DNA of 64,000 nt from the NCBI GenBank assembly GCA_001790515.1, contig MGCS01000002.1:199243-263242 (forward strand). The letters are read 5' to 3'. Positions 7,283 to 28,516 of this stretch are shown here, in pieces; the first letter of the stretch is position 1; each line of letters opens with the position of its first letter. Made by a program: the position numbers and the translations under genes. The notes beneath the pieces were generated by a model. It was not told the origin of the DNA, ran no database searches, and worked only from the letters and a program-made list of their open reading frames with translations. The DNA comes from Candidatus Saccharibacteria bacterium RIFCSPHIGHO2_12_FULL_44_22. Lineage in GTDB: Bacteria; Patescibacteriota; Saccharimonadia; Saccharimonadales; Saccharimonadaceae.

Positions 7283-7323
7283 CCACAAGCGGTATACCAG
7301 GTGAACAGTATAATGTAATGTGC

Positions 7324-7352
7324 TTGTCCTTATTTTCTATCTGCGGTATTCT
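7324..7352 (+). promoter_or_regulatory. Promoter of the secreted hydrolase gene, near-leaderless
   Basis: TTGTCC (7324-7329), 17-base spacer, TATTCT (7347-7352). The predicted transcription start is about 3 bases before the ATG at 7362, which lacks a Shine-Dalgarno sequence. Confidence 0.5.
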
Positions 7353-7361
7353 ATACATATT

Positions 7362-12680: not shown

Positions 12681-13727
12681 ATGGCGGTTTATAAAGTACC
12701 ACAAGACGTCGAGGCGGATGACAAATTAATTGGTCCGTTTAGCTTTCGGCAGTTCATTTATCTGATTGTCGTTGCTATATCTATGGCAGGAGCATGGGGT
12801 CTGTATCAGGTATTTATACCACTGGTTATCGTACCAATCCCGATCATGCTGTTTTTTGCTGCATTAGCGCTACCGCTACGTAAAGACCAACCGATGGAAA
12901 CGTATCTGTCCGCCGTTGTGTCGTTTTACTTTTTGAAATCACGCAAACGTATGTGGCAACCGGATGGTATTGATTCGTTCGTCACCATTATCCCGCCAAA
13001 AGATTCAGAAAAGATCCTGACGAAACAATTCGGCGAAGACGAAGCAACTCGTCGCCTGGGCTATTTGGCAGACCTTGTCGACAGTCACGGCTGGTCCGTG
13101 CGTGGACAAGGCGTACCCACACCAGACACGTCGATCAACACCGATTTGTACTACGAATCACAGGCGACTGGCGACATGATGGATACAAACAACGCAGCTT
13201 CGCAGCGGCTAACCCAAGGACTACAACAATCATCAACTACGGCTCATCAAAACGCCGTAGCACAAATGCAGCAATCGGCCGTAACCGATGACACGTCTAT
13301 GACCACAGTCGCACAGTCAAATCCACTACTCGCAGGTCAGCCGCCAATTAATCCCGCAGCCGATCAATACGATCCTGCGACGCCGTTTAATCCAATGGCA
13401 CACCAGCAACCAGCGCAGATTAAACCAACTACCCAAAGCTATTTGGGGCGCGAACAGCTAGATGCAATCGCATATGCATCTGCACTCGCAGAAGAAGCAT
13501 CAGATGACCGTGCAGCGGGCATACCGCGCAATAATACGACGAAAAGCACTAGCGTAACACCTACGTCCGATGGTACAATAGAACGTGCTAAGAAAAGGGC
13601 GGAAGAACTGGCAAAACGCGACGATCTAAAGGTGTCGACGTTAGCCGAAGAGGCAAATCGCCTCGCTAAAAAAGACCTTGACCAGGGGATGGTCGAAGGC
13701 GACGAAGTAACAATTTCTTTACGGTAA
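12681..13727 (+). CDS. PrgI/VirB3-like T4SS membrane protein with long C-terminal tail
   Basis: Residues 1-115 match the PrgI family: VPQDVEADDKLIGPFSFRQF, two closely spaced helices (about 25-42 and 44-65), then a PLRKDQPME/FLKSRKRMW segment. PrgI is the VirB3 counterpart in Gram-positive-type conjugation systems and is normally little more than 100 residues. Here about 230 extra residues follow, first Gln/Pro/Asn-rich (about 170-260), then a charged helical end rich in Ala/Glu/Lys. The tail may contact VirB4 or the TraC-like protein encoded next; that is inference. The gene sits 43 bases after the VirB6-like gene and 33 bases before the next. Confidence 0.8.
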   Translation: MAVYKVPQDVEADDKLIGPFSFRQFIYLIVVAISMAGAWGLYQVFIPLVIVPIPIMLFFAALALPLRKDQPMETYLSAVVSFYFLKSRKRMWQPDGIDSFVTIIPPKDSEKILTKQFGEDEATRRLGYLADLVDSHGWSVRGQGVPTPDTSINTDLYYESQATGDMMDTNNAASQRLTQGLQQSSTTAHQNAVAQMQQSAVTDDTSMTTVAQSNPLLAGQPPINPAADQYDPATPFNPMAHQQPAQIKPTTQSYLGREQLDAIAYASALAEEASDDRAAGIPRNNTTKSTSVTPTSDGTIERAKKRAEELAKRDDLKVSTLAEEANRLAKKDLDQGMVEGDEVTISLR

Positions 13728-13760
13728 CGACGACAGTAAGAGGGAGTGGAGACAAACACA

Positions 13761-14636
13761 ATGCCACCAAATAATCAGATGCAGCAAGGTCCGCAGATGC
13801 AAGGCGGTCAACCAGGGATGCCAATGCAGCCCGGTCAAGCCATGCCACAGCAACCCGCTGGCGCACCGATTAACCCAACCGACGCCAAAACTCCTCCTTC
13901 TGCGCCTTCCAACCCCAATACCACACAAAACAGCCTGCTGTTCTCTGAGTTGCGTGACAACATGGTCGTTATGAATGATGGTAGTTTTCGTGCTGTCATT
14001 GCCTGCAAATCAATCAACTTTGATCTGATGAGCAGCAAAGAGCGCGAAGGTATTGAATACAGTTATCAAAACTTTTTGAACTCACTGTATTTTCCTGTCC
14101 AGATTCTTATCCGATCGCAACGTGTTGATATCGGCCCATACATCGAACGTCTAACAAACATTCGCCGCGACCAAGAAAACATGCTGCTGAACGTTTTGAC
14201 AGATGACTATATTGACTTTATTGACACCGTTTCACAGGAAGCAAACATTATGGACAAGAGTTTTTATGTTGTTATCCCATACTGGCCACACGGTGATTTG
14301 AACACCGTTAAACGCGGTAGCAAAAGCCTATTCGGAACAATCTTTGGCGGCGGCGCTCCAAAACAACGAGCGATCGTGGTCGATCATGCGCAATACGAAA
14401 AGGCAAAAGACGAAATCAAAAACCATTCCGACGCTGTTATGAGCGGGCTGTTTCAGCTGGGTATTAAATGTGTGCAACTCAATACAAAAGAATTAGGCGA
14501 GCTGTATTATAACTTTTACAACCCAGACACTGCTGTTCGCGAACCACTTGGTAATTTCGAAAGCATCACTGCAATGTATGTTCGAAAAGGCGAGGGTGAT
14601 GCACCGCGACCTCATTTGATTCGGGAGGAGTTATAG
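13761..14636 (+). CDS. TraC/VirB4 N-terminal-domain-like protein
   Basis: The 291-residue protein starts at the ATG at 13761, preceded by GGAG at a good distance; a GTG 15 bases upstream is less likely. Its first 45 residues are Gln/Pro/Met-rich. The rest resembles the ATPase-free N-terminal domain of TraC/VirB4 proteins (SLLFSELRDNMVVMNDGSFR, YQNFLNSLYFPVQILIRSQ). It has no Walker motif. It is encoded directly before the complete VirB4-like ATPase and ends in GGAGG-TTATAG, which also provides the ribosome site of virB4, so the two are probably made together and may interact. Confidence 0.65.
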   Translation: MPPNNQMQQGPQMQGGQPGMPMQPGQAMPQQPAGAPINPTDAKTPPSAPSNPNTTQNSLLFSELRDNMVVMNDGSFRAVIACKSINFDLMSSKEREGIEYSYQNFLNSLYFPVQILIRSQRVDIGPYIERLTNIRRDQENMLLNVLTDDYIDFIDTVSQEANIMDKSFYVVIPYWPHGDLNTVKRGSKSLFGTIFGGGAPKQRAIVVDHAQYEKAKDEIKNHSDAVMSGLFQLGIKCVQLNTKELGELYYNFYNPDTAVREPLGNFESITAMYVRKGEGDAPRPHLIREEL

Positions 14637-14637
14637 A

Positions 14638-16533
14638 ATGGCCAAAAAATTAGACGCAGTCGATATTGCCGCGCAGCAACGCGCACGTGAACAAGTTGAG
14701 GTTGAACAGGCATTCCTAAAAGGCATCACGACACTTCGCGACCTGGTTGCACCCAGCAGCCTAGAAATCCATTCCAGCTATTTCCGCCTGGGAACAAAAT
14801 ACGGTCGTACTATTTATGTCTATGCGTACCCTCGCCAGATCTATACAGGCTGGTTAAGTTCGATTATCAATATCGACGAAGTCCTCGACGTGAGTATGTA
14901 TTTCTATCCTGTAGAAAGCGAAGTTGTCTTGAAAAACCTTCGCAAAAAGGTAACGCAAATGCAGGCTACTATGGCTATCAACGAAGAAAAGGGTCGTACG
15001 CGCGACCCAGGACTAGAAGCGGCGTTAAATGACGCCGAAGAACTTCGTGATGAGATTCAGGTGGGGTCGGAGCGATTCTTCCGCTATGGACTGTACATCA
15101 CGCTCTATGGCGATAGTATGGATGAACTGAACTTTGTGCAGCACAAGATTGAAACAATTTTCGGCCAACAATTAGTGTTTAGCAAGGTTGCATCGTCGCA
15201 GCAAGAACAAGGGTTAAACACGACCGTTCCACAGATGACCGATCAGCTGCAGATTCGTCGTAACATGAACACCGGCGCCATCAGCACCAGCTTTCCGTTC
15301 ACTAGTGCTGACCTGACGCAAGAAAAGGGCATACTGTACGGAATTAACATGCACAACAACGGCCTGGTTATCTTTGACCGGTACACACTAGAAAACGCCA
15401 ATATGGTGGTCTTTGCAAAGTCTGGTTCTGGTAAATCATTCACCGTCAAACTAGAGGCCGTACGAAGTATGATGATGGGTGCCGACGTGCTGATTATCGA
15501 CCCAGAAAACGAGTATCAGAAATTATCTGACGCTGTTGGCGGTAGCTATATTCGTTTATCACTTAACTCTGACGTTCGTATCAACCCATTTGATTTACCG
15601 CGTGTCGTCGATAACGAAGAAGCAGACGATGCACTGCGGGCAAACCTTGTGACGCTTCACGGACTACTACGGCTAATGCTAGGTGGAGCGCACATTGCAA
15701 CTGGCGGCGTGACTGATTCGACAGGCTTGACACCTGCAGAAGAAGCTGACCTTGATCAAGCATTGATTGATACGTATGCACGATCAGGCATTACCAGCGA
15801 CCCGCTGACGCACAACTCACTAGCTCCAACCATGATGGATCTGTATGACACACTCGTTCACATGGAAGGATCTGGTCCTGCGCTGGCACAACGACTGCGC
15901 AAATATACAACAGGTACATTTGCGGGTATCTTTAGCCAGCAGTCAAACATTGATATTAACAACCAAATGGTCGTGTTTAATATTCGCGACCTCGAAGACG
16001 AACTTCGTCCGGTTGCGATGTATATCGTCCTATCACACATTTGGAATGTCACCAGGTCACATCTCAAAAAACGCATGCTGATCGTGGACGAGGCCTGGCA
16101 GCTGATGAAATACGAAGATTCTGCGAACTTCTTGTTCAGCCTGGCGAAACGTGCTCGAAAATACTACCTAGGCGTGACAACGATCAGTCAGGATGTTGAA
16201 GACTTCATGGCCAGCAAGATGGGCCGTGCGATCGTCGCCAACTCGTCTATGCAGTTGTTGTTAAAACAATCCCCAAGTGCGGTCGACGTATTGGCCGATG
16301 TATTCAAATTGACAGACGAAGAGCGCAAACGACTAGCTAACTTTCCGGTTGGTCAGGGGTTGTTCTTCGCTGGTTCAAATCACGTGCATATTCAAGTAGT
16401 TGCGTCTCGTACAGAACATCAATTGGTCACGACCAACCCAGTCCAGCAAATGCAGCAAGAAGAAGAAAAACGAATGCAGGAGATGGCTCGTCAACGAGCA
16501 GCTCAGGAGGCTGCCGCTCAACAGGTGGCATAA
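14638..16533 (+). CDS. virB4: VirB4/TraE-family T4SS ATPase
   Basis: The 631-residue protein carries a Walker A motif SGSGKS (about 262-267), the strand ADVLIIDPENEY and a Walker B MLIVDEAWQLM (about 480-490), diagnostic of VirB4-type hexameric ATPases that power T4SS assembly and transport. The first 230 residues form the usual non-ATPase domain. The C-terminus is Gln/Glu-rich and probably coiled. It overlaps the end of the previous gene's ribosome site and is 9 bases from the scaffold/NlpC gene. No VirD4 coupling protein or VirB11 is encoded in the window, so a complete machine would need genes elsewhere. Confidence 0.9.
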   Translation: MAKKLDAVDIAAQQRAREQVEVEQAFLKGITTLRDLVAPSSLEIHSSYFRLGTKYGRTIYVYAYPRQIYTGWLSSIINIDEVLDVSMYFYPVESEVVLKNLRKKVTQMQATMAINEEKGRTRDPGLEAALNDAEELRDEIQVGSERFFRYGLYITLYGDSMDELNFVQHKIETIFGQQLVFSKVASSQQEQGLNTTVPQMTDQLQIRRNMNTGAISTSFPFTSADLTQEKGILYGINMHNNGLVIFDRYTLENANMVVFAKSGSGKSFTVKLEAVRSMMMGADVLIIDPENEYQKLSDAVGGSYIRLSLNSDVRINPFDLPRVVDNEEADDALRANLVTLHGLLRLMLGGAHIATGGVTDSTGLTPAEEADLDQALIDTYARSGITSDPLTHNSLAPTMMDLYDTLVHMEGSGPALAQRLRKYTTGTFAGIFSQQSNIDINNQMVVFNIRDLEDELRPVAMYIVLSHIWNVTRSHLKKRMLIVDEAWQLMKYEDSANFLFSLAKRARKYYLGVTTISQDVEDFMASKMGRAIVANSSMQLLLKQSPSAVDVLADVFKLTDEERKRLANFPVGQGLFFAGSNHVHIQVVASRTEHQLVTTNPVQQMQQEEEKRMQEMARQRAAQEAAAQQVA

Positions 16534-16542
16534 ACCACAACT

Positions 16543-19500
16543 ATGTCCGGTACTGATTTATTAGAACGCGAGCAGCAAGCTGGTAATGAGGCCGACAATC
16601 TAAATCCTGGCGACAGAGCATATCACAATCAAGTCGATGGAAGTCACGAGGCTATTGAGGGTCACGACCGAGATGGCGATGGCTTTGATGACATAGTAAA
16701 TCACCTTGATTTTGGACATCGAGGCTCTACTCATGTCGATTCACACGGAGATACCGTTCAAAACAATCCCAATAGCAACCCCGACCCAAACGAAAATATA
16801 GCAAGTACCCGCGACAAAGAAAATAATCCCGCAGAAGCAGGCTGGAATACCACGGTCGGCAAAGAATCTACCGATGGCAGCCCTGCAAAAGGCCTAGGCT
16901 CGATGCAAATCAACGTCAAAGGCAAAAAAGGCCCGACCGGGTCAGTTGTCGGGATGTTGCTTGGTGGTGGCGCGGTTGTGACGGTTACACTATCCCCGGG
17001 AATGCTACTAGTCCAAATGAAAGAAGTTTTTCATAACGACCAAGCATCAGCAACTCGTACTAGCCTGTTGATGACCAGAGCAATGTTGGCCGTTGCATTC
17101 AAGGCAAACCATATTAATGATCCTTGCAACGGTAAGTCAAAAATTAGCTGCCAACTAGGAAGTGCGTCAAAATCACTTATCCAAAAGTACAAAGAAGCAG
17201 GGTTCAAAGTCGACGCAGTCGAAGTCGACGCTGACGGCAAGGAGACTGGCAAAAACGCAACTGACATGGATCCTGCTGATCCTGCTACGGATCAAAATCG
17301 ATACAAGGTAAATACCCTGGAGTTTCCGGATGGGCATGTGTCATCTGATGGTGCCGACTTTAGTAGGTATACAGATTCCAATCCATCCGCTAGACGTGTC
17401 GCCGTAAATGCCGACAACGGTAGATCGGGGAACTATTTAACACAACAATTCAGAAGCACTCTTGTTGAGCGTCTAAAGATTGCAAGCGGCAAGCAAGCAA
17501 CAAACTATACAGAAGGTGAGACAGACGAAGCTAAGGCAGAGCGTGCGCGTCAGTTTAACGCCACAACTGGCGGAAGCAGCGAGGCCGATGCCGAGGCAAA
17601 TGCACGGCGGGTATCTGATGAAGTTCGAAGCGAAACAGAAGAGCGAGCAAATAGAGGGGGAGCTGCCGCCAAAGTAGGCGGCGTCACTTCGTTTATACAA
17701 ACGGTCTGCGCTGGATACAAAGGCACAACGATTGGCCTGGCTGCCGTTAAATCAAAACATATGCTGCGCTTAGCTAATTTCGCTATGGAGTTCTTGAAAG
17801 TTGCCGATATGATAAAAGCGGGTGTAGCGACCGCTACGGCAGTAAGCTATTTATCGGATAGATTGACATACGTTGAACGAAACGAATACCTTGAAAACGG
17901 AGAGAAGAATCCGAAATATAATCTCAGTGCAACAGATTCTCAAGGCTATAGGATTGCGGCACACGGTGACATGACAGGATTAGCTTTATTCGCTGAAAAA
18001 TACGTCCTGGGATATGACGGAGAGGGTGGCTTGAGTCTTTCAACAAAAGCCTTATTAGGTGCTACCGCTGCTACTACTGCACTCGAGGCTGCGACCGGCG
18101 TCTTTGTTAACGCCGTCACCCCGGGACCTGGCATCGATGGTAAAGATGCATTAAAAAATGTATGTCGTACAGCGGGCAGTCTAGCAGCTATAGCAGCACA
18201 ATGTACATTACTCGCTACTCAATCATTGGCTGCAATAGGTACGACAGGACCCTTCGGTGCCGCAACAACTGTAATAGGCCTCAAGATGTGCCAGTGTGCT
18301 GTTATGAGTAATCAGGTTATTGATACTATTCTACAGAGCGCGGCAGGAGTACCTACATGTGAAGATATACAGGGTCTAATCGGCCTGCTAAAGAAGGGGC
18401 TTATTGCCGCGACCGCGGGAGCTGTAGCTGCTGCTGCCGAAAGCGTTATTCGTAACTGGAATATAGGGTCAGACACAAAAGGAGTAGATGCGGGGAATGC
18501 CATCGCCGCGGGTGCGGGAATAATATTAACTTCAGCTGCAACATCCTACGCGTTAAAACCGACCACGAAATCAAACTACAAATCCTATATAACCTACACT
18601 GATCCATACGTAGAAAAAATAGCCGAGCTAGACAAAGAAGACGCGAAATCAACACCTTTTGATACATCAAATAAATATAGCTTCGTAAGCTCGTTAATTA
18701 GATCAGTGAAGATTGAGGATACATCTAGCAGTACAGCGTTTGGTGGAGTGTTTAATTTGTTAAATGTCGTACCAACGGCGTTATCCACACAAGCAAACGC
18801 TCTTTATACCAACCCAGTTCAAGAACAAGAGCAGCGATATGACTGCAATACCGAAGATAAAATCAAAGACGAAGGATTAGACTATCTAGGAGTCGATGGC
18901 GACAAGTTCTGTACAATACTACCAGATACGCCGCAAAAAGAACTGAAAGGTATTTCCACTCAAGAAAAAGAAGTAAAAAGCACTTATTTTCAGGATACTC
19001 GACAATGGATGGAAGATGAACAAAATAAAAGCGAAGATGACGGCGGAACGGCAGATGACGGCGATGGCTGCGAAAAAGGGTGCGATGGAGAACCGTCTAT
19101 AGATGGTGATGGTAAGCCAAATCCAGATAGTCAGTATCAAAAATGGATCACGTATTGCAGCGAGAAGCGAGAAGATCCATGGGGATTCTCTTCGCATCCG
19201 TTCGAAGAAGGAAGTGATCGTGATCAAGACTGGTTTACCGGCAAACAATGTCTAAAAGAGAGTGACATGTTGGTCAATTTTAGGACATGGCACAAAATAT
19301 GTGCGGAAATTGCAAAAGGCAAAGGCACGCTGAATTGCTGGGATAGCGCAGAAGCAGCAGCTGTACCATCCAGTACCTGTGCTGGTGGTGGCCCCACGGC
19401 AATTTATACTTGCGCACTGAAGTACGACAACTATCAGTACAAATGGGGCGGTGGACATGGTGATGTTCCCGATGCAAAAAAATGGATCGACGAATTCAAT

Positions 19501-19839
19501 GCAGGGAAAGTTCCTGAATGGGAGTCGATCTTGGACTGCTCGGGCATAGTACGCATGGCGTACGTTGAAGCTATGGGGGTCGAGGATCAGGCATATGTAG
19601 CCGAACCAGAATACGAAACAAGTAAACATTGGCAAAAAATATCGCTCGAAGAGGCCACTCAAGGTGATATCGTTACATCGTCTGGTCATGTCGCGATCGT
19701 TCAATCAAACGATCCCGCAGCAAAGACATTCAAAATTTTCCATTCATCAACTCCAGGTAGCCCTAAAGAAGACAACATACTTCACGGTACCCAAAGTTAT
19801 GGTTCGACAGTTTCAGCATTTAGGGCGACGAAGGGGTAA
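16543..19839 (+). CDS. Large membrane scaffold, paralogue 2, with C-terminal NlpC/P60 peptidase
   Basis: The 1098-residue protein has an acidic N-terminal region (1-130), a membrane helix (about 136-157), a scaffold region homologous to those at 3752 and 22987 (KYSFVSSLIRS about 710, REDPWGF about 872, DWFTGKQCL about 895), and then a NlpC/P60-type cysteine peptidase domain (about 950-1098). Catalytic residues are visible: Cys999 in LDCSGIV and His1049 in SGHVAIVQ. NlpC/P60 enzymes cut peptide stems of peptidoglycan. In Gram-positive-type T4SS such enzymes open the wall for the channel. It follows virB4 by 9 bases and heads a cassette repeated at 22987-28516. No Shine-Dalgarno is evident, so translation may be coupled to virB4. 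Confidence 0.75.
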   Translation: MSGTDLLEREQQAGNEADNLNPGDRAYHNQVDGSHEAIEGHDRDGDGFDDIVNHLDFGHRGSTHVDSHGDTVQNNPNSNPDPNENIASTRDKENNPAEAGWNTTVGKESTDGSPAKGLGSMQINVKGKKGPTGSVVGMLLGGGAVVTVTLSPGMLLVQMKEVFHNDQASATRTSLLMTRAMLAVAFKANHINDPCNGKSKISCQLGSASKSLIQKYKEAGFKVDAVEVDADGKETGKNATDMDPADPATDQNRYKVNTLEFPDGHVSSDGADFSRYTDSNPSARRVAVNADNGRSGNYLTQQFRSTLVERLKIASGKQATNYTEGETDEAKAERARQFNATTGGSSEADAEANARRVSDEVRSETEERANRGGAAAKVGGVTSFIQTVCAGYKGTTIGLAAVKSKHMLRLANFAMEFLKVADMIKAGVATATAVSYLSDRLTYVERNEYLENGEKNPKYNLSATDSQGYRIAAHGDMTGLALFAEKYVLGYDGEGGLSLSTKALLGATAATTALEAATGVFVNAVTPGPGIDGKDALKNVCRTAGSLAAIAAQCTLLATQSLAAIGTTGPFGAATTVIGLKMCQCAVMSNQVIDTILQSAAGVPTCEDIQGLIGLLKKGLIAATAGAVAAAAESVIRNWNIGSDTKGVDAGNAIAAGAGIILTSAATSYALKPTTKSNYKSYITYTDPYVEKIAELDKEDAKSTPFDTSNKYSFVSSLIRSVKIEDTSSSTAFGGVFNLLNVVPTALSTQANALYTNPVQEQEQRYDCNTEDKIKDEGLDYLGVDGDKFCTILPDTPQKELKGISTQEKEVKSTYFQDTRQWMEDEQNKSEDDGGTADDGDGCEKGCDGEPSIDGDGKPNPDSQYQKWITYCSEKREDPWGFSSHPFEEGSDRDQDWFTGKQCLKESDMLVNFRTWHKICAEIAKGKGTLNCWDSAEAAAVPSSTCAGGGPTAIYTCALKYDNYQYKWGGGHGDVPDAKKWIDEFNAGKVPEWESILDCSGIVRMAYVEAMGVEDQAYVAEPEYETSKHWQKISLEEATQGDIVTSSGHVAIVQSNDPAAKTFKIFHSSTPGSPKEDNILHGTQSYGSTVSAFRATKG

Positions 19840-19841
19840 TC

Positions 19842-20333
19842 ATGCAGACAAAGAAAAAGATCATCACTATAGTCAGCATCCTTTTTGTCGTTTCATTGAT
19901 CGGCGTTGGCATCTGGATAGTGCTAAGCGTAGTAAAAGAACAACCTCAGCCAAACGATGGAATAACCGAACCCGGTAGTTCATCTGATAACTCGCAAGAT
20001 ACGCCGACCAATAATGATGGTGCGGCAAACCAGGGAAGTGAGCCTTATGTTGCTCAAAGAACCCAAGAGGATTTGAATACATTTGTTTTAGAAAATAACC
20101 CTGGTTTGGTAGATAGTACGACAAATTTACCTATTTATACGATTGTACGCAAGCAAAATCCGCTAGAGAACTGGTATATTCTAAGAATCCGCAATAGCCA
20201 GCAAGATACAAGCGACGCTGACGTCATAATACAAGATATAAATGGCACATTAACGATCGTGGCTGGTCCAGGAACGGGATTATTTTTAAATAAAAATCTG
20301 CCAGAAGCCGTTAAAAAGGCACTGTCGGAGTGA
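19842..20333 (+). CDS. Small single-pass membrane protein
   Basis: The 163-residue protein has one N-terminal helix (about 7-29), a Pro/Asn/Gly-rich linker (about 35-68) and a compact extracytoplasmic domain. The domain contains WYILRIRN, then DINGTLTIV and a short helix at the end. That pattern (Trp-Tyr strand, INGxLT strand, hydrophobic strand, terminal helix) resembles the small proteins at 22241-22915 and 28016-28516, so the three may share a fold. Its ATG lies 2 bases after the scaffold stop and its stop precedes the M23/lysozyme start by 2 bases. Function is unknown; it is absent from the second cassette. Confidence 0.5.
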   Translation: MQTKKKIITIVSILFVVSLIGVGIWIVLSVVKEQPQPNDGITEPGSSSDNSQDTPTNNDGAANQGSEPYVAQRTQEDLNTFVLENNPGLVDSTTNLPIYTIVRKQNPLENWYILRIRNSQQDTSDADVIIQDINGTLTIVAGPGTGLFLNKNLPEAVKKALSE

Positions 20334-20335
20334 TT

Positions 20336-21604
20336 ATGGAATTCACAAAGCGTACAACACCCCTAAGCATCACATACTTCATTGCGGCTATTGTGTTTAC
20401 TCTTACTTTTTTTACAAGTACAGCCCTCGCCATTACTGAAGCGAATCCAAGCGAAAAAGAAAAGGGTAGTTTTGATATTTTGTATTGGGAGAAGTGTGGC
20501 GTGACTGGATCTAGCGGCACAGGTACTCCATCAACCACAGAAGAACCAACAAGCACTGGTGCGGTAGATGAGAGTGGCTGGGCGTTCCCTACTGTTGCCG
20601 GCACACCGATATCGAGTGACTATCGTGCTCCTAATCGACCCGGACACCAGGGTGTCGATTTAGCGGGTCCTGGGATATTGGGGCAGCCGATCTACGCATC
20701 TCGCGACGGTACAGTGACTCACTCCGGAACGGCATCTGGATTTGGTTATTGGATTGTCATCGAACATGATGTTGACGGGCAAATAATTAGCAGCGTTTAT
20801 GGACATATGTCGGGTGATGATCTTATGGTGCCTGTTGGAGCTAAAGTAAAAACTGGTCAGCAAATATCCAGAGTTGGCAATCAAGGACAAAGCACTGGCC
20901 CACATCTTCACTACGAGGAGCGTGTCGGTGGTGTAAACGGAGGAGATCGAAAACCCGTTGCAGTATATGGTCAGACAGGCAACACAACACCCGCTGACCC
21001 TGCCGATCCCGCGGATCAGCAGGCATCTACACAGCCCGCAGATACGAGCGCAGCCGATCAGACCAGCTCTTGTAAAGGTGAAAGTGGCAGCAAAACTCCA
21101 GTAACGCCTGTAAATTGTGCCGAAGCGAACAAATCAGAAGATAAGTCCAAGTTCGTGTGGGACTATTTGCGCGGGCAAGGTCTATCCGAAGAGCAGACGG
21201 CTGGAGTAATGGGAAACCTAGCACATGAATCTGGCGATCCTACATTCAAAAAATCGACGGATGTATACGAAGTAGGTGGCGCAAATGCAGGATACGGTCT
21301 AGCACAGTGGTCGTTTGGTCGACAAACTAGTTTACGTGACGCCGCAGCAAAAGATCCGCGAGGTCTGACTGACCTGTGCTTTCAGCTTGACTATCTTGTC
21401 GAAGAAAGTAAGGCACGCGAACGAAGAGATGGTGGTGGAAATGAGTGGGATGGCATCAAAGAACAAAAAACGATTGAAGATGCAACGTATTACTTTGAGT
21501 ATAACTACGAACGACCACAACCTGGCAGTACTGGTGCTCGTGTAAAATATGCGAACGAATATATGAATAAATATGGATCAGGTGGAGGAAATCGCAATGT
21601 ATAA
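20336..21604 (+). CDS. Secreted bifunctional peptidoglycan hydrolase: M23 endopeptidase plus phage-type lysozyme
   Basis: The 422-residue protein has a signal peptide (about 1-31) and an M23/LytM zinc endopeptidase domain (about 80-215) with H104, D108 and H190/H192 (GPHLH). A Pro/Asp/Thr-rich linker leads to a phage-tail-lysozyme-like domain (about 280-422) whose probable catalytic Glu298 is in GNLAHESG. One arm would cut peptide bridges, the other the glycan chain. The ATG at 20336 follows GGAG at 5 bases; an upstream GTG at 20330 is rejected. The M23 domain is closely related to that at the end of the scaffold protein at 22987-26007. Its stop overlaps the PEGA gene start by 8 bases. Confidence 0.8.
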   Translation: MEFTKRTTPLSITYFIAAIVFTLTFFTSTALAITEANPSEKEKGSFDILYWEKCGVTGSSGTGTPSTTEEPTSTGAVDESGWAFPTVAGTPISSDYRAPNRPGHQGVDLAGPGILGQPIYASRDGTVTHSGTASGFGYWIVIEHDVDGQIISSVYGHMSGDDLMVPVGAKVKTGQQISRVGNQGQSTGPHLHYEERVGGVNGGDRKPVAVYGQTGNTTPADPADPADQQASTQPADTSAADQTSSCKGESGSKTPVTPVNCAEANKSEDKSKFVWDYLRGQGLSEEQTAGVMGNLAHESGDPTFKKSTDVYEVGGANAGYGLAQWSFGRQTSLRDAAAKDPRGLTDLCFQLDYLVEESKARERRDGGGNEWDGIKEQKTIEDATYYFEYNYERPQPGSTGARVKYANEYMNKYGSGGGNRNV

Positions 21605-22244
21605 TACAGCTATAGACATACTCAAGCAATATCGAGGTGTATTATTTTTTATTCTTTTTGCTGTAATCTTCGTCTTTTCGATTGTTACCGGTTTTACTCT
21701 ATATCAACGATCAGGGAAGTTACCATACAACCTGGCTGTAGCACCAAAAGACAGTATTGTACGGCTAAATAATGTGGAGGTTAAACCTGGGACACAATAT
21801 CTACAACCCGGAGTATATAAAATCTCAGTAACACGCGAAGGGTATACAAACTACACCAAAACAGTCACGCTAGACGAGAAATCAAACGAAACTGGTCTTG
21901 CGGTTCCATTAGTCCCTGTGTCGGACGAAGCTATCAAATGGGTACAAGACCATAAAAAAGAATATGAAGCCGTGCTTTCAGCGGCAAAGTCAGAAGAAGA
22001 CAGGCAATTAGCGCTACTAAAAGCCGCCAACCCAATAACAGAGAATATGCCATTCAAAAACCTGCTATATGGGATCAATTACCGCGCCGAGCCTAAAGAT
22101 ACAACCGGAACAAGAATACAAATTGAAATAACTTCGACAGAGAGCTATCGAGCTGCTGCGTTGTACCAACTGCGTAAATGGGGTTATGATCCGACAGATT
22201 ACAGAATCACATTTACTAACTATACGAGTCCGTTTTCATCATGA
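21597..22244 (+). CDS. Membrane-anchored PEGA-domain protein (cassette A)
   Basis: The 215-residue protein has one membrane helix (about 15-37) followed by a PEGA-like beta domain (about 45-100) with the typical order: an N-terminal strand, LNNVEVKPGTQ, then LQPGVYKISVTREGYT. A helical, charged region and a second small alpha/beta domain end the protein. PEGA domains are common in bacterial surface proteins and are thought to mediate envelope interactions. The ATG at 21597 overlaps the previous gene, and ATGA overlap joins it to the next gene. It is paralogous to 27385-28023 at the matching place in the second cassette. Confidence 0.7.
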   Translation: MYNTAIDILKQYRGVLFFILFAVIFVFSIVTGFTLYQRSGKLPYNLAVAPKDSIVRLNNVEVKPGTQYLQPGVYKISVTREGYTNYTKTVTLDEKSNETGLAVPLVPVSDEAIKWVQDHKKEYEAVLSAAKSEEDRQLALLKAANPITENMPFKNLLYGINYRAEPKDTTGTRIQIEITSTESYRAAALYQLRKWGYDPTDYRITFTNYTSPFSS

Positions 22245-22915
22245 AAAAAATAATCATCATATCAGCCGCTATCTTGTCTATCATTATTATTGGAATAGCT
22301 ATTACAATCCGCGTCATCACACCCGAGCAAAACCCGACTTCAAATGTCACATTCAGATTCAGTCAAAGCGACATATCAGTCAAACTTTTCAAGAACCTCC
22401 CCGATAATCAGTCATCAGAGATAACAACAATGGAAGAAACGACAACCTTAGTACTTGATAATGGATCTTATTACTACATTCCATCCGGAATTAAACTTGC
22501 CGGTGGCGCTGTAAACTTTGACATTACAAATGATACTCAATTCGTCGTCGATCCAACATACAGTCGAGAAGTATTAAACACTGAATTAAATCTCCAACAA
22601 ACTGCAATTCACAACACTATCAAACAAACGTATTCATTAATCGATCAGAACTATACTATTCAACAAGGGAAGCTGTACAACCACGGTCAATGGTACATAA
22701 CAACTTTGACCGACAAACGAGCAACGAACAGAAATCCTTTTGACACCTACAGAATTGTCGCATTGAACGAGAATGGTGTATGGCAGACTGTCACAAAACC
22801 AGAGCTTGTCTTATCTGCGATTGACTACCCGGGAATCCCTAAAAATATTTTAACCGCCATAAATGCAGCAACTACTGATACTATGACTAATACAACCTTT
22901 ATCGACTACGAGTAA
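22241..22915 (+). CDS. Small membrane-anchored protein (cassette A)
   Basis: The 224-residue protein has an N-terminal helix (about 4-25) and an extracytoplasmic domain. The C-terminal 95 residues contain QQGKLYNHGQWYITTL followed by a strand ending NGVWQTVT, then PELVLS and a terminal helix. The same pattern appears in 28016-28516 (DQGRLYKQGQWYGTTL), so these are paralogues at the ends of the two cassettes. Translation is coupled to the PEGA gene by an ATGA overlap. No named family is recognised; it may be a periplasmic or wall-zone partner of the PEGA and hydrolase proteins. Confidence 0.55.
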   Translation: MKKIIIISAAILSIIIIGIAITIRVITPEQNPTSNVTFRFSQSDISVKLFKNLPDNQSSEITTMEETTTLVLDNGSYYYIPSGIKLAGGAVNFDITNDTQFVVDPTYSREVLNTELNLQQTAIHNTIKQTYSLIDQNYTIQQGKLYNHGQWYITTLTDKRATNRNPFDTYRIVALNENGVWQTVTKPELVLSAIDYPGIPKNILTAINAATTDTMTNTTFIDYE

Positions 22916-22930
22916 GTCTATCTAATACCC

Positions 22931-22959
22931 TGTACTAATACTCAAATTTGTGGTATTCT
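22931..22959 (+). promoter_or_regulatory. Possible promoter of cassette B
   Basis: TATTCT (22954-22959) has the same core as the -10 boxes at 7347 and 10303, with a poor -35 (TGTACT, 22931-22936) 17 bases upstream. Predicted start near 22966 leaves about 21 bases of leader including GGGAAG before the ATG at 22987. Confidence 0.35.
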
Positions 22960-22986
22960 ATGTAACGATAGAAGTGATCCGGGAAG

Positions 22987-25900
22987 ATGAGTAAATTAGA
23001 CACACGAAAACCGTCATCTGACACTGATGGCCAGCGCTATAACGCCGGTCAGAATTCGTATAACCCTTCGCAAACGGATTACGAGAACAGATTTGACAAG
23101 ATAAAAGCAGCCGAAGAAGAACTAGGCAGCCTCGATAACAGCTGGAATGCTGAATATCAGGGTAAAAACGGCTCGAATATAACCCTTCAGGGCGACAATG
23201 TAAAAAGTAATTACAACGCCGACGATCCAAACGCAAACATAGATAAAATCAAAGAAAAAGAGCAGACCGACCTTGCGCCAAGAATTGGTCGCACTGCGCC
23301 AGCCAATAGCAAACCAAAGAAACGCTGGCAGCTATTTACCAGCAAAAAACTACGAGGTAAATCGTCGCTTATTACGGTCACGCTGGTATTGTTTGGTGGT
23401 GGTGGCATTATGACACTGGTTTCGTCACCCACACTCGTTATTGCGCAGTTAAAAGAAGTGTTGACACAAGATTTGAATGATCAAGTGAAGGCACTCGATA
23501 CACGGTCGTCGATGATGATCCGAGCCAAGTTAAAAACCGCCACTAGTGGATCATGCGGGGTCGTAAAGGTTGCCTGTAAATGGAGCCATATGACCATCGA
23601 GCAAGCAAATTCACTTCGTGCTGCTGGCGCTCAAATTGATCTTGATACGACTGACAGTCCTGAGGGTCGAGGGAAACCGAAAAAAATAACCTTCTACGAT
23701 GAGAGTACAAAACAAACCATCAACATTACATCAGCAGAAGATTTTGCAAAACATTCTGCAAACAATCCTTCATTTCGTAAGATTATGATCAAAGCCTATA
23801 ACCCAGCGTATGTCGGCACCAGTGATCGTATCGCATTGGGCGTATATAGGCTGTATAAAATCGCAAAAAATACTGGTATCAAAGGCGATACTGATGAAGA
23901 ACGGCGTAAATCTCTGAACGAATCTATCAAAAACGGGTCTGATGAGGTAACGACAAATCGACTCCGTCCAGAAACCGATTCAGAGGGTAGGCCAACGGGT
24001 GATTATTTGGACGAGAACGACCAAAAAGTGACCGCAGCGGAACGCGCAGTTATCGAAGATACCGCTCGTGTCGGTCAAGAAGCGTCCAGGCTTGGCACTG
24101 CCAATATAGCAACAACTGTTGGGAATGGATTGAAGATAACAGCAACCGCAGAGAATGCCTGTACGGCTTGGATTGCAATGCGTGCTGTCCAAGGTGCAGC
24201 AAAGACAAAAATGCTGTATGATGCTGGGCGCGCAGCACAATTAGGACTACTGGGACCGGCCGATAAATCAAAGGCTGGCGATGCCGACGAAGGAGAGATG
24301 ACAACAGTCGGTGATATGATCACCAAAACGGACGCCCGAAAAGAAGTAGCCGACGAGTCTAAATTAGAACAGACGAGCGCGTCTACATCACCACCAATGG
24401 TCGCCAATCCCGACTACGGCAAAGATGCGACCGATGCGCCAGGACCAAGCGTCGCCATGCACGGCGGCGCGCCAGAACTAGACATTCGTGCATCGCAGTT
24501 TATGTTGAGTGGCGGATTTGTCGGTACGATGTCTGCGATGACTCAGTTGATCGCCAAAGCAGTTCCGGGTGCGAACTCACCGCAAGACATTACTCGCGCC
24601 TGCAAAACACTCCGCAATCCTATTGTCCAAGCAGGGACATTAGCAGCTGGCGTCGCTGTTGGCGCAGGGTCGTTCGGGTTGTACACCGCAGCAGGTATTG
24701 GTGCCTCACTACTCATCAGCATGGCAACTCCGTATATGTTGTCGCGAACAGTCGACATAATGTCAGGCGATGTATTTCAAAATCTGTCAGGCCTTAATTA
24801 TGGCGACGCAATGTTTGTCGGTACTTCGGCACTGCTAGGCACAATGGCGATGAAACGCGGTATGAAGCCGCTTAGTTCGAAACAGGCGATTACCTACACC
24901 GATGCAACAAAACAGACAAACGATCAGTACGCAGCAACAGAGCGTGACATCGCAAAATCAACACCATTTGATGTAGCAAATCAGTATTCATTCCTTGGTT
25001 CATTGACACGGACGGTACTGCCGTATGCAAACCAATCAAAAAAGAGTATTGGCAGCGCTGCACTGAATCTTGCAAGCCTTGTGCCGGCAAGTCTTAGTTT
25101 TTCATCATCTACGACAAAAGCAGCTGCAACGACCGAACGATTCGAAAAATGCCCTGATAGCGAGTACCAACGATTAAATATCGGCGCTGATATATTTTGC
25201 AATGTCCGCTACGGGCTTGATGAAGAAGAGCTAGCAATTGACCCAATCGAAAACGCCAACTGGATGGCTAGTACTGGAAATATCGACACAGAAAGTGACG
25301 ACGGTGCATCAAAGGAAAACGGCCAAAAATGGAATCTGGCAAAATTTGAAAAAGAATGCGTTGAACGCGAAGACGGCTGGGGTGAAGATAGTGCCGATGA
25401 TGGTGTTGGTGATGGAACTGACTGTTTGAGCGCCGAGAACGAAGCAGTCAATAAACGGTTCCGCGTCTATAAATTTGATCAAACAGTCAGCGATTCGCTT
25501 GATAGCAAAAAAGTCGACACAACACCAGGCACGACCGGGTTTAGCACTGGCGAAAAAGGTCCAGTATCAAGCGACGGTTGGGCGTATCCGACAGTCGTGA
25601 ACACTACGACACTTACTCAAGGATGGAAATCGCCGACACACAAAGGTGTCGACATCGCTGGCCCACTAAACACCGCACTATTTGCTGCTCGTGACGGCAA
25701 AGTTATTCAGTCGGGTCCAGCATCTGGATTTGGTAACTGGATTATCATTCAGCACGATATCAATGGACAGCGGGTCGATACGGTTTATGGCCACATGTAC
25801 AACGACGGACTGCTGGTAAAGGTTGGCGATCAGGTTAAAGCCGGGCAACAGATAGGCAAGATGGGCAACAATGGCCAAAGTACAGGATCACACCTGCACT

Positions 25901-26007
25901 TTGAAATATGGAATGGTGGTCGTTTCGGTGGAAAAGATGTCGATCCGCAGCCTATCATCGAAAAAGCCAAAAATGCAACGCCGAGTGATGCGGCGAGGGA
26001 TGTGTAA
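22987..26007 (+). CDS. Large membrane scaffold, paralogue 3, with C-terminal M23 endopeptidase
   Basis: The 1006-residue protein has a charged cytoplasmic N-terminus (1-120), a membrane helix (about 126-150), the scaffold region shared with 3752 and 16543 (NQYSFLGSLTRT about 665, CPDSEYQRLNIGAD, VEREDGWGED about 792), and an M23/LytM zinc endopeptidase domain (about 855-990). Metal ligands are visible: H885, D889 and H969/H971 (GSHLH). M23 enzymes cut peptidoglycan cross-bridges. In contrast to paralogue 2 the final peptidase is M23 rather than NlpC/P60, and the M23 domain resembles that of the separate enzyme at 20336-21604. It heads the second cassette and overlaps the next gene by one base. 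Confidence 0.75.
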   Translation: MSKLDTRKPSSDTDGQRYNAGQNSYNPSQTDYENRFDKIKAAEEELGSLDNSWNAEYQGKNGSNITLQGDNVKSNYNADDPNANIDKIKEKEQTDLAPRIGRTAPANSKPKKRWQLFTSKKLRGKSSLITVTLVLFGGGGIMTLVSSPTLVIAQLKEVLTQDLNDQVKALDTRSSMMIRAKLKTATSGSCGVVKVACKWSHMTIEQANSLRAAGAQIDLDTTDSPEGRGKPKKITFYDESTKQTINITSAEDFAKHSANNPSFRKIMIKAYNPAYVGTSDRIALGVYRLYKIAKNTGIKGDTDEERRKSLNESIKNGSDEVTTNRLRPETDSEGRPTGDYLDENDQKVTAAERAVIEDTARVGQEASRLGTANIATTVGNGLKITATAENACTAWIAMRAVQGAAKTKMLYDAGRAAQLGLLGPADKSKAGDADEGEMTTVGDMITKTDARKEVADESKLEQTSASTSPPMVANPDYGKDATDAPGPSVAMHGGAPELDIRASQFMLSGGFVGTMSAMTQLIAKAVPGANSPQDITRACKTLRNPIVQAGTLAAGVAVGAGSFGLYTAAGIGASLLISMATPYMLSRTVDIMSGDVFQNLSGLNYGDAMFVGTSALLGTMAMKRGMKPLSSKQAITYTDATKQTNDQYAATERDIAKSTPFDVANQYSFLGSLTRTVLPYANQSKKSIGSAALNLASLVPASLSFSSSTTKAAATTERFEKCPDSEYQRLNIGADIFCNVRYGLDEEELAIDPIENANWMASTGNIDTESDDGASKENGQKWNLAKFEKECVEREDGWGEDSADDGVGDGTDCLSAENEAVNKRFRVYKFDQTVSDSLDSKKVDTTPGTTGFSTGEKGPVSSDGWAYPTVVNTTTLTQGWKSPTHKGVDIAGPLNTALFAARDGKVIQSGPASGFGNWIIIQHDINGQRVDTVYGHMYNDGLLVKVGDQVKAGQQIGKMGNNGQSTGSHLHFEIWNGGRFGGKDVDPQPIIEKAKNATPSDAARDV

Positions 26008-27383
26008 TGAAAAAAGCACGTTTTCCGTTTCGATCATTCTTTGCCGGCATTATGGCTATCGTCATGCTGTTGTCGTTATCCGTGCAGACAGCCCAAGCGA
26101 TTGAACTAAATCCAAACTTTGACGCAACGTTCTATTCAGATAATAACGTACAATTCTACGACCCACGTTGTCTAAATACATCATCAGAATCGGGTGAAAT
26201 TATGCAGTTAGCTGGCAATAATAATACAGAACAGATCCTCAATTTCTATATGCGAAAAGGACTTAAGCTGCATCAGGCAGCCGGGATCATAGGTAATATG
26301 GTACAAGAATCGGGGTTAAATCCAGCAATCATTGAGGGTGGGCGTATCGCTCCTGATGATTACGTATTACAAAGTGGCGTCGGGTTTGGACTCGTCCAAT
26401 GGACAAGTGCAGATCGTCAAAAAAACTTCATGAATTTCATGCGAGCGAGCGGGGCACATGTCACTAATCTTGCCGGACAACTTGAGTTCACATGGAAAGA
26501 GATGAACGAAGGATTCCCAGGAATGCTTCGCGCCCTTAAAACAGCAAAGACAGCGTCGGTGGCGGCAGTTATCGTGCATGGTAAATCTGATGTTGGCAGT
26601 TCTCATCCTGACTATAAAGAAGCGATGACCGCTCTCGCTGGTGCACGGGGCTATGAATCGTCAGCTGACAATGGAGATTTTGTCGTCCGTGTTCGTGGCG
26701 GTACAGCAACCAAGGTGTACGAACAATACAACGATAGATCGGCGCTTGCTGGCGAAACAGCACCTGACGAGATGAAACCTGCCGGCGAAGGAACCGATGC
26801 TGATATTCTAGCCCTAAAGAATAATTCAAACGGTACGATGGATGGTCAAAAAAAAGAGTCATGTAAAGGTGATGGGGAGATGAATAAGAACGGTGGGGCA
26901 GGCGCGCTGCAAAACAAGGCGGCGACCTATGCACACAAAAAATATCATTCGGAAAACCTCACAGAACAGCGACCTGAATATGCCGATGCTGTCGTCAAAG
27001 CCCGAACCGACGGGCGTTACGTTGGTGGCAACAACGGCAACGACTGTGGCGGGTTCGTAACGACGCTTATTCACGATAGCGGGTATGATCGAAAATATAA
27101 TAACAGTGACCAAAAAGGCAGAGGTGGGTATACCGTCAAGCAAGAAGAGTGGTTAAAAGACCTAGAGAATAACTGGCACGAAGTAGAAGCCGGTGAACCA
27201 AGAGAAGTTGGCGACGTCGCTATCAACGAAGATCATACGTATATTTATGTAGGAAAGTTTGATGACTGGCAGCAATACGATATCGCCTCAGCATCATTAG
27301 CAGGTCCACAGCGCGCGCCGATGGCTGGTCAGGAAAGCCCTAAAGACCCAAGTTTTCGATGGTATAGAATAGGAAAAGCGTGA
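26007..27383 (+). CDS. Secreted bifunctional peptidoglycan hydrolase: phage-type lysozyme plus NlpC/P60-like peptidase
   Basis: The 458-residue protein has a signal peptide (about 1-32) and a phage-tail-lysozyme-like domain (about 70-225) with probable catalytic Glu101 in GNMVQESG. A linker leads to a cysteine-peptidase domain (about 305-458) with Cys347 in NDCGGFV and His410 in EDHTYIYVG, fitting NlpC/P60 or the related CHAP fold. It would cut both glycan and peptide parts of peptidoglycan. It is the cassette B counterpart of the M23-lysozyme protein at 20336-21604, but the peptidase type and its side of the lysozyme differ. It starts within the stop of the scaffold gene (TAATG) and is 1 base from the PEGA gene. 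Confidence 0.8.
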   Translation: MKKARFPFRSFFAGIMAIVMLLSLSVQTAQAIELNPNFDATFYSDNNVQFYDPRCLNTSSESGEIMQLAGNNNTEQILNFYMRKGLKLHQAAGIIGNMVQESGLNPAIIEGGRIAPDDYVLQSGVGFGLVQWTSADRQKNFMNFMRASGAHVTNLAGQLEFTWKEMNEGFPGMLRALKTAKTASVAAVIVHGKSDVGSSHPDYKEAMTALAGARGYESSADNGDFVVRVRGGTATKVYEQYNDRSALAGETAPDEMKPAGEGTDADILALKNNSNGTMDGQKKESCKGDGEMNKNGGAGALQNKAATYAHKKYHSENLTEQRPEYADAVVKARTDGRYVGGNNGNDCGGFVTTLIHDSGYDRKYNNSDQKGRGGYTVKQEEWLKDLENNWHEVEAGEPREVGDVAINEDHTYIYVGKFDDWQQYDIASASLAGPQRAPMAGQESPKDPSFRWYRIGKA

Positions 27384-27384
27384 T

Positions 27385-28023
27385 ATGTATTACGAATGGT
27401 ATCATGCAAATCGTCGTCGCGTCGTCGTCATAGGATCGATTTTGTTCGCACTTATCATCATATGGAGCGTATACACCTATGTCTCCCGTATAGGAAAAAC
27501 CGCCGTCACGATTAACGCCGTTCCGTCAAATAGTACCGTGCTTGCAAACAACACATCGGTCGGATCGGGTACTGTTTGGCTGACTCCTGGCGAATACACA
27601 GTCAAAGGCAGCAAAGATGGTTTTTCGACTCGCGAAAAAAAGATAACGGTGGATGAAGAGAAGAGAGATAACGTCGTCGCGCTAGCACTTACTCCAGAGT
27701 CAGATGAAGCAAAAAGATGGGCAGAGAAAAATCAACGACAGTACAAAGATAACGAAGAATTTGGCGCGATCGAGGCGCAAGCTAACGGTGAGCAGTTTCG
27801 ACAAAACAACCCAGTCGTCGCAAAATTACCATACGACGACCCCTACTATCAAATTAACTATATTACCGAAAACGACGATGTTATTATTACCATCACCACA
27901 CCGTCGCCTCGCTATCGATACTATGCTGTGCAAAAATTCCGTGAACTCGGGTTTGATCCTGCTCGTTTCATTATGCGATTCACAGATTTTAAAAACCCAT
28001 TAGGAGGTGTATCAAATGAATAA
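27385..28023 (+). CDS. Membrane-anchored PEGA-domain protein (cassette B)
   Basis: The 212-residue paralogue of 21597-22244 has a membrane helix (about 13-33), a PEGA-like domain (about 38-95; LTPGEYTVKGSKDGF), a charged helical stretch with SDEAKRWAEKN (compare SDEAIKWVQDH in cassette A), and a final alpha/beta domain (YYAVQKFRELGFDP; compare ALYQLRKWGYDP). Position after the lysozyme gene and before the small anchored protein is the same in both cassettes. The final 8 bases overlap the next gene. Confidence 0.7.
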   Translation: MYYEWYHANRRRVVVIGSILFALIIIWSVYTYVSRIGKTAVTINAVPSNSTVLANNTSVGSGTVWLTPGEYTVKGSKDGFSTREKKITVDEEKRDNVVALALTPESDEAKRWAEKNQRQYKDNEEFGAIEAQANGEQFRQNNPVVAKLPYDDPYYQINYITENDDVIITITTPSPRYRYYAVQKFRELGFDPARFIMRFTDFKNPLGGVSNE

Positions 28024-28516
28024 CCGATCGACCTATATACTTGCTAGTATCACTGGCGTTATTTTAACTGTTGCCGTTATCGTCGGGGTAATCAGCGCTC
28101 AAACACCTGCAACACCCATACAACCCCAACAATCAACCCCACAGCCAGTAAACGAACAAGCACTGACAGCTGCCGAACTATCAACGTTGCTTGAAGTAGA
28201 ACTACCCGCAATTACATCTGTGTTTACTCAAACGTTCCCAGCAGCAAGCGAACTATATACGATTGATCAAGGTCGACTATATAAACAAGGGCAGTGGTAC
28301 GGCACGACGCTAACATACAAAGGAAGTGACGAGGCAAATCGCGACACACTTCGTGTACTTATGCAAAAAAAGGATGGTGCATGGATCGTCAGAACAAACC
28401 CGCCACAGCTACTACTTAGCACCAAAGACCTCGGTGATGTGCCAGTTGATGTCATCCAGTCATTAAACCAGCCTGCACCACTCCCAGGCACCGCTACGTC
28501 GCCGGCGATCAATTAA
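28016..28516 (+). CDS. Small membrane-anchored protein (cassette B)
   Basis: The ATG at 28016 follows AGGAGG at 8 bases, so it is preferred over an in-frame GTG 9 bases upstream. The 166-residue protein has an N-terminal helix (about 7-27), a Gln/Pro-rich linker and a domain with DQGRLYKQGQWYGTTL and KKDGAWIVRTNPPQLLLS, paralogous to the end of 22241-22915. It is the last gene of cassette B and converges on recF with 1 base between the stops. Function is unknown. Confidence 0.55.
   Translation: MNNRSTYILASITGVILTVAVIVGVISAQTPATPIQPQQSTPQPVNEQALTAAELSTLLEVELPAITSVFTQTFPAASELYTIDQGRLYKQGQWYGTTLTYKGSDEANRDTLRVLMQKKDGAWIVRTNPPQLLLSTKDLGDVPVDVIQSLNQPAPLPGTATSPAIN

What the first reader, a model, noticed from the sequence alone, without database searches (positions are those of the whole stretch)
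16543..28516. Duplicated T4SS-linked cassette in which three peptidoglycan hydrolase modules have changed places
Seen: two head-to-tail cassettes share the order large scaffold, lysozyme protein, PEGA protein, small anchored protein. In cassette A the scaffold ends in NlpC/P60 (C999, H1049) and the next secreted enzyme is M23 then lysozyme (E298). In cassette B the scaffold ends in M23 (H885, D889, H971) and the next enzyme is lysozyme (E101) then NlpC/P60-like peptidase (C347, H410). The same three activities are thus kept, but the M23 and cysteine-peptidase modules have swapped sides. Known: T4SS of Gram-positive type carry wall hydrolases. Inference: a modular wall-penetration device, possibly one copy for the own wall and one for a host cell.
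Basis: partly seen in the sequence, partly recalled or inferred. Interest (0 to 1): 0.88.

Follow-up and report, generated by a model that had tools for sequence, protein, structure and literature searches.

The report
Mix-and-match wall-cutting cassettes beside T4SS
A tiny host-dependent bacterium (Saccharibacteria) carries, beside its secretion machine, two old gene cassettes that each pair a large anchor protein with wall-cutting enzymes, and comparison with about 100 relatives shows that the enzyme parts are exchanged like tool bits, which could tune the machine to different host walls.

Summary
Cassette A (16543-22915) and cassette B (22987-28516) both read scaffold, lysozyme protein, PEGA protein, small anchored protein. 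Each has a PF18013 lysozyme, an M23 peptidase and an NlpC/P60-type cysteine peptidase, with the two peptidases on opposite proteins.

Three things change the picture. (1) The copies are not a recent local duplication: distal scaffolds of ten genomes form one clade, proximal ones largely another. A third scaffold without hydrolase lies at 3752-6526. (2) It was not a reciprocal swap: A's M23 probably derives from B-type scaffolds (borderline, p-AU 0.0497), but A's NlpC not from B's cysteine module. (3) Module shuffling is general: 102 distinct cassettes show 57 architectures, beside a VirB4 mostly 70-90% identical while scaffold cores share about 27%. The usual layout is Zn-peptidase on the scaffold, lysozyme plus cysteine-peptidase on the enzyme; window cassette A is the only complete reversed case.

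Best reading: a T4SS-associated wall-penetration complex with interchangeable catalytic tips, a conserved distal and a variable proximal set. Own-wall versus host-wall roles are untested.

The parts
12681..16533 (+). T4SS core: PrgI/VirB3-like (12681-13727), VirB4 N-terminal part (13746-14636), VirB4 ATPase (14638-16533)
   Evidence: Pfam PrgI E 2e-13, TraG P-loop E 5e-29; VirB4 found in 55 of 61 genomes searched, at up to 89% identity in relatives
10319..12637 (+). VirB6-like membrane protein, second copy
   Evidence: weak TrbL/VirB6 Pfam match E 1e-3; 36% identical to 1686-3752; multiple hydrophobic segments
1686..3752 (+). VirB6-like membrane protein, first copy
   Evidence: 36% identity over 360 aa to the second copy, E 6e-68
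3752..6526 (+). third scaffold paralogue (C), no C-terminal hydrolase
   Evidence: 25% identity to A scaffold over 891 aa, E 1e-49; core reaches the C-terminus (tail 37 aa); sister of the G024 upstream scaffold, support 100
16543..19839 (+). cassette A scaffold: N-terminal part, TM 139-157, long conserved-cysteine core, C-terminal NlpC/P60 (C999, H1049, H1067)
19842..20333 (+). cassette A extra small anchored protein (163 aa, one TM); a counterpart follows the NlpC scaffolds of G008 and G170
20330..21604 (+). cassette A secreted enzyme: signal/TM, M23 (105-201), PF18013 lysozyme (274-415, E300)
   Evidence: phi29 gp13 3csq E 1e-7
21573..22244 (+). cassette A PEGA protein, one N-terminal TM
   Evidence: Pfam PEGA E 3e-5; nearest G004 single-cassette PEGA 90/84
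22241..22915 (+). cassette A small anchored protein
   Evidence: 38% identity to 28007-28516, E 9e-17; tree
22987..26007 (+). cassette B scaffold: TM 128-146, conserved-cysteine core, C-terminal M23 (H885, D889, H971)
26007..27383 (+). cassette B secreted enzyme: signal/TM, PF18013 lysozyme (E101), NlpC/P60-type cysteine peptidase (C347, H410)
   Evidence: (phi29 gp13 3csr E 4e-5)
27385..28023 (+). cassette B PEGA protein
   Evidence: Pfam PEGA E 3e-6; in the B clade 99/97
28007..28516 (+). cassette B small anchored protein
   Evidence: B clade 100/99

Best explanation
The locus encodes a cell-wall penetration complex of the Saccharibacterial chromosomal T4SS. Each cassette makes a large scaffold with one membrane anchor near the N-terminus, a long outside domain with conserved cysteines, and a C-terminal peptidoglycan-cutting module, plus a secreted enzyme that pairs a phage-tail-type lysozyme with a second peptidase, plus a PEGA protein and a small anchored protein. 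Shown by computation: domains, order, conservation, and extensive exchange of catalytic modules between scaffold and enzyme across the group while the T4SS ATPase stays conserved. Inferred: the scaffold holds to the T4SS in the envelope and presents the hydrolase at the contact zone; glycan and peptide cutters open the wall for the T4SS; module turnover follows the wall chemistry that must be opened, most likely that of the host, with the conserved distal cassette doing a constant job and the proximal one a changeable job.
For: T4SS linkage and wide conservation. Hydrolase domains with intact motifs. 102 distinct cassettes with 57 architectures; scaffold tails M23 29, VanY 18, LAS 16, EEP-M23 8, none 10, unknown 13, others; Pfam finds M23, NlpC, Amidase_2, VanY, CHAP, M14, BSP, GH3, GH43, C39, GDSL, SLT and EEP in a sample. 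VirB4 pairs at 82% median identity have scaffold cores at 27% and share the scaffold module in only 12% of cases. Distal cassettes: 10 of 10 scaffold-M23 with lysozyme-Cys enzyme; proximal ones of the same genomes show at least six layouts. Literature: this T4SS locus is needed for epibiotic growth in Southlakia epibionticum (PMC10633639), including the peptidase and lysozyme genes next to virB4 (PMC12102498).
Against: No evidence on the target wall: hosts of nearly all these genomes are unknown, so no link between module type and host wall could be tested. Many catalytic assignments rest on motifs and profiles, not assays; in PrgK of pCF10 the LytM and CHAP domains seem regulatory rather than active (PMC12857230). 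Membership of the scaffold in the T4SS is by gene neighbourhood only. Proximal scaffolds are not one clade (G102 and G123 fall elsewhere).
Confidence: 0.55

Rival explanations
1. The hydrolases are ordinary VirB1-like assembly enzymes that open only the epibiont's own wall for T4SS assembly; variety reflects easy functional replacement, not host adaptation.
For: Other Gram-positive T4SS carry muramidase or SLT plus CHAP (and LytM) in VirB1-like proteins such as PrgK and TraG (PMC12857230). The usual combination glycosidase + Zn peptidase + Cys peptidase is kept in most cassettes.
Against: Own-wall chemistry should be fairly stable within a family, yet modules change between close relatives and include GDSL, GH43, GH3, EEP and BSP domains not needed for a standard own wall.
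Confidence: 0.25
2. The modules are polymorphic wall-lytic toxins used for killing the host or competitors, with the small anchored proteins acting as protective partners.
For: Polymorphic C-terminal modules on a conserved carrier resemble polymorphic toxin organisation; small anchored proteins sit directly next to the enzymes.
Against: The small proteins do not change family with the module (one family follows different enzymes); the T4SS locus is needed for growth on the host, not only for killing (PMC10633639).
Confidence: 0.1
3. Mostly neutral domain shuffling at a recombination-prone site next to the replication origin.
For: The site is fixed beside recF-dnaN-dnaA; scaffolds diverge fast even in the non-catalytic core.
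Against: Recognisable catalytic modules and open frames are kept in about 100 cassettes, and the distal cassette keeps one layout in ten genomes.
Confidence: 0.1

Closest known systems
PrgK (VirB1-like) of pCF10 and TraG of pIP501, MPF-FATA T4SS
   Same: T4SS-linked wall hydrolases combining a glycan cutter with CHAP and, in PrgK, LytM/M23 domains (PMC12857230)
   Different: Here the three modules are split over a secreted enzyme and a large scaffold, the lysozyme is of the phage-tail type (PF18013), modules vary among relatives, and the cassette can be doubled
Saccharibacterial T4SS locus SEML1_0006-0019 of Southlakia epibionticum
   Same: Chromosomal T4SS with peptidase and lysozyme genes directly after virB4, needed for epibiotic growth (PMC10633639, PMC12102498)
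   Different: I found no description of the scaffold family, tandem cassettes or module exchange in the passages of those papers that I read
phi29 gp13 tail lysin
   Same: Lysozyme structure match 3csr/3csq; gp13 also pairs lysozyme with an M23 domain (own knowledge)
   Different: Bacterial T4SS-linked gene; M23 stands before the lysozyme in cassette A and on the scaffold in cassette B
Polymorphic toxins / modular phage endolysins (own knowledge)
   Same: Conserved carrier with exchangeable catalytic ends
   Different: The carrier is a T4SS-linked anchored scaffold; modules are wall hydrolases; the partner enzyme changes as well

Membership tests
MPF-FATA-type (Gram-positive) T4SS of Patescibacteria | VirB4 ATPase with PrgI/VirB3 and VirB6 neighbours | tested here: met
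MPF-FATA-type (Gram-positive) T4SS of Patescibacteria | VirB1-like wall hydrolase near virB4 | tested here: met
   PF18013 + M23 + NlpC/P60 domains directly downstream; not tested with the published VirB1 profiles themselves
PrgK (VirB1 of pCF10) | LytM, muramidase and CHAP in one polypeptide | tested here: not met
   modules lie on two proteins per cassette; cysteine modules are NlpC/P60-type
PF18013 phage tail lysozyme | profile match above cut-off and catalytic Glu | tested here: met
   86.7 and 87 bits against cut-off 28.2; E300 / E101
NlpC/P60 | Cys-His-His triad and profile match over cut-off | tested here: inconclusive
   A: triad C999/H1049/H1067 but 20.9 bits against cut-off 23; B: Cys and His invariant, only weak profile link to MepS
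Peptidase M23 | HxxxD and HxH zinc motifs, profile match | tested here: met
VirB6 (TrbL) for the scaffold | polytopic membrane core with TrbL match | tested here: not met
   one clear TM plus weak segments, no Pfam or NCBIfam match for the core; no solved fold for the core
Conjugation system | relaxase and DNA transfer | not tested
   relaxase not searched here; absent in most Patescibacteria T4SS clusters according to PMC12102498

The most novel reading that the evidence does not exclude
The scaffold and its partner enzyme form a tool-holder with exchangeable wall-cutting tips that decides which host wall a Saccharibacterium can open; lineages with two cassettes keep one constant set and one set that changes with the host.
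Probability: 0.3. Interest if true: 0.82.

Novelty: new variant of a known kind. Interest (0 to 1): 0.64.

Why it matters
How Saccharibacteria breach particular host bacteria is an open question. Here a locus that is needed for epibiotic growth in the strain tested (PMC10633639) turns out to combine a conserved motor with fast-changing, exchangeable wall-cutting modules. That makes a concrete, testable candidate for host-wall matching, supplies a natural library of wall hydrolases, and defines a large scaffold family for which I found no counterpart in Pfam, NCBIfam or the PDB.

Tried and rejected
Recent local duplication of a cassette: rejected, since distal scaffolds group with distal scaffolds of other genera; only G012 shows a recent within-genome pair. 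Reciprocal module swap: not supported (NlpC of A is remote from B's cysteine domain). Scaffold as VirB6: no TrbL match. Assembly artefact: rejected, the tandem layout recurs in other assemblies, among them single-contig genomes (G035; CP011211.1 = L115). Solved fold for the scaffold core: Foldseek matched only its M23 domain; the one long hit listed (cyanophage pre-ejectosome 9k2v) has TM 0.11 and means nothing. Cysteine domain of B by Foldseek: no match in the whole-protein model. A rule 'one Zn and one Cys peptidase per cassette' is only a tendency (55 Zn/Cys, 17 Zn/Zn, 2 Cys/Cys, 1 Cys/Zn).

Full report
Setting. The window lies in a 1.23 Mb genome; VirB4 matches place it in Saccharibacteria. 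The cassettes stand between a T4SS core (VirB6, PrgI, VirB4) and recF-dnaN-dnaA on the other strand (dnaA by Pfam; recF and dnaN by eye), a position near the origin also described for this T4SS by PMC12102498. VirB4 was found in 55 of 61 genomes searched.

Observation. All named proteins and their domains were confirmed, with the residue E298 corrected to E300 and a small anchored protein added in cassette A. The two cysteine-peptidase domains are remote relatives in the NlpC/P60 group (hhalign 94%, E 1e-7; weak match of B's profile to MepS/Spr). The lysozymes match phi29 gp13. A third scaffold paralogue without hydrolase lies upstream at 3752-6526 next to a second VirB6.

Anatomy of the scaffold. 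One clear TM near residues 130-155, then about 700 residues with invariant or nearly invariant cysteines (C190, C197, C392, C539, C722, C791, C813 in B numbering), then the catalytic module. The conserved cysteines fit an outside location (inference). The AlphaFold model of B (pLDDT 69, pTM 0.63) matched solved structures only in its M23 domain. No Pfam or NCBIfam family covers the core; its profile finds members in 124 of 151 family genomes.

Neighbourhood comparison. I fetched the region downstream of VirB4 or around the lysozyme gene from about 60 genomes and 80 more named loci. Most genomes have one cassette. Two complete tandem cassettes were annotated in nine genomes (window, G035, G012, G102, G067, G081, G063, G162, G123), and further ones are cut by contig or fetch ends. 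One double-cassette locus is in the complete genome CP011211.1 (L115), so the tandem is not an assembly artefact.

History. In the scaffold tree (quick IQ-TREE, SH-aLRT supports only) the distal scaffolds of ten genomes form a clade (99). Most proximal scaffolds, the upstream third scaffold and G013 form another (99). The duplication is therefore older than these genera. G102 and G123 proximal scaffolds fall elsewhere, so the proximal slot seems to have been refilled at least once. In the window, the cassette A enzyme, PEGA and small protein do not group with the proximal counterparts of relatives (lysozyme + LAS enzyme and a protein of about 530 aa) but lie nearer single-cassette lineages such as G004 and G013, with weak to moderate support. 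The M23 of the A enzyme is 49% identical to that of the B scaffold over 163 aa, against 24% for the scaffolds. It falls inside the B-scaffold M23 group (93/96); holding the ten B modules together without it costs 12 log units, p-AU 0.0497, which is borderline and was tested after seeing the tree. So A was probably rebuilt from parts, one of them from a B-type scaffold, not produced by a reciprocal swap.

Module exchange in the group. With profiles seeded from domains of these loci I classed 102 distinct cassettes (scaffolds under 90% identical) and found 57 architectures. Scaffold ends carry M23, VanY, LAS-type zinc peptidase, EEP plus M23, NlpC, CHAP, amidase, M14, M23 plus BSP, or nothing; enzymes carry PF18013 lysozyme (sometimes SLT) with NlpC-type, C39, CHAP, LAS, M23, GDSL, GH3 or GH43. 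A sample was checked with Pfam. LAS assignments rest on the H-x6-D / HxH motif and, for the enzyme type, on a PDB match to a LysM-domain protein chain, 9flh; that this chain is an M15-type peptidase was not checked. The usual layout is Zn peptidase on the scaffold and lysozyme plus cysteine peptidase on the enzyme (55 of 75 cassettes classed on both sides). The reversed layout occurs once, in window cassette A. NlpC on a scaffold was seen in only 3 of 295 family genomes: the window, G008 (with a C39 partner), and G170, which is cut by a contig end and paired with an odd domain that may be a degenerate M23.

Rates. For pairs of genomes with VirB4 at 80-85% identity, scaffold cores share 27% (median) and the same scaffold module is found in 12% of pairs. 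Among double-cassette genomes the distal slot is always scaffold-M23 with lysozyme-cysteine enzyme (10 of 10; one of them, G136, with an added GDSL, and one, G067, cut by a contig end), while the proximal slot shows NlpC|M23-LYS, LAS|LYS-LAS, M23|LYS-LAS, LAS|SLT-M23, LAS|GDSL-GH3-LYS, LAS|LYS-Cys and others. Core identities are only slightly lower in the proximal set (33% against 38% median), enzyme identities much lower (27% against 49%).

Interpretation. The data support a T4SS-linked wall-penetration device with exchangeable catalytic parts. Work on Southlakia epibionticum shows that the locus is needed for epibiotic growth (PMC10633639), and PMC12102498 notes essential peptidase and lysozyme genes after virB4. 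In the passages I read and in my literature searches (open-access full text only) I found no description of the module exchange or the tandem cassettes. Whether the modules act on host or own wall is not known; the constant/variable contrast suggests a division of labour but is not proof.

Limits. Many genomes are metagenome assemblies; 13 scaffold tails remain unassigned; module classes depend on session-made profiles; class counts are not corrected for relatedness; the sample of 80 named loci is biased to close VirB4 relatives.

Noticed in passing
window 3752-6526: Third scaffold paralogue without hydrolase next to a second VirB6; relatives carry it too, and in G135 and G097 a similar frame is broken by stops.
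   Followed up: partly
own genome contigs C11:4973-6631 and C6:23451-25130 (M23 loci L002, L003): Two further, distant VirB4 genes (38-39% identical), each with a small M23 protein nearby but no scaffold; possibly T4SS of mobile elements.
   Followed up: no
L065, L114, L122, L139 and others: Scaffolds with an endonuclease/exonuclease/phosphatase (EEP) domain before M23; substrate unclear (DNA, phospholipid or teichoic acid).
   Followed up: no
window 7320-8951: Esterase-like protein (BD-FAE, E 4e-21) with one N-terminal hydrophobic segment, inside the T4SS region; a relative also follows the third scaffold in G024 (L075).
   Followed up: no
upstream loci L076-L094: Arrays of small 120-150 aa ORFs on the opposite strand upstream of virB6, possibly the VirB2-like pilins described for this T4SS; not seen in the window at that place.
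   Followed up: no
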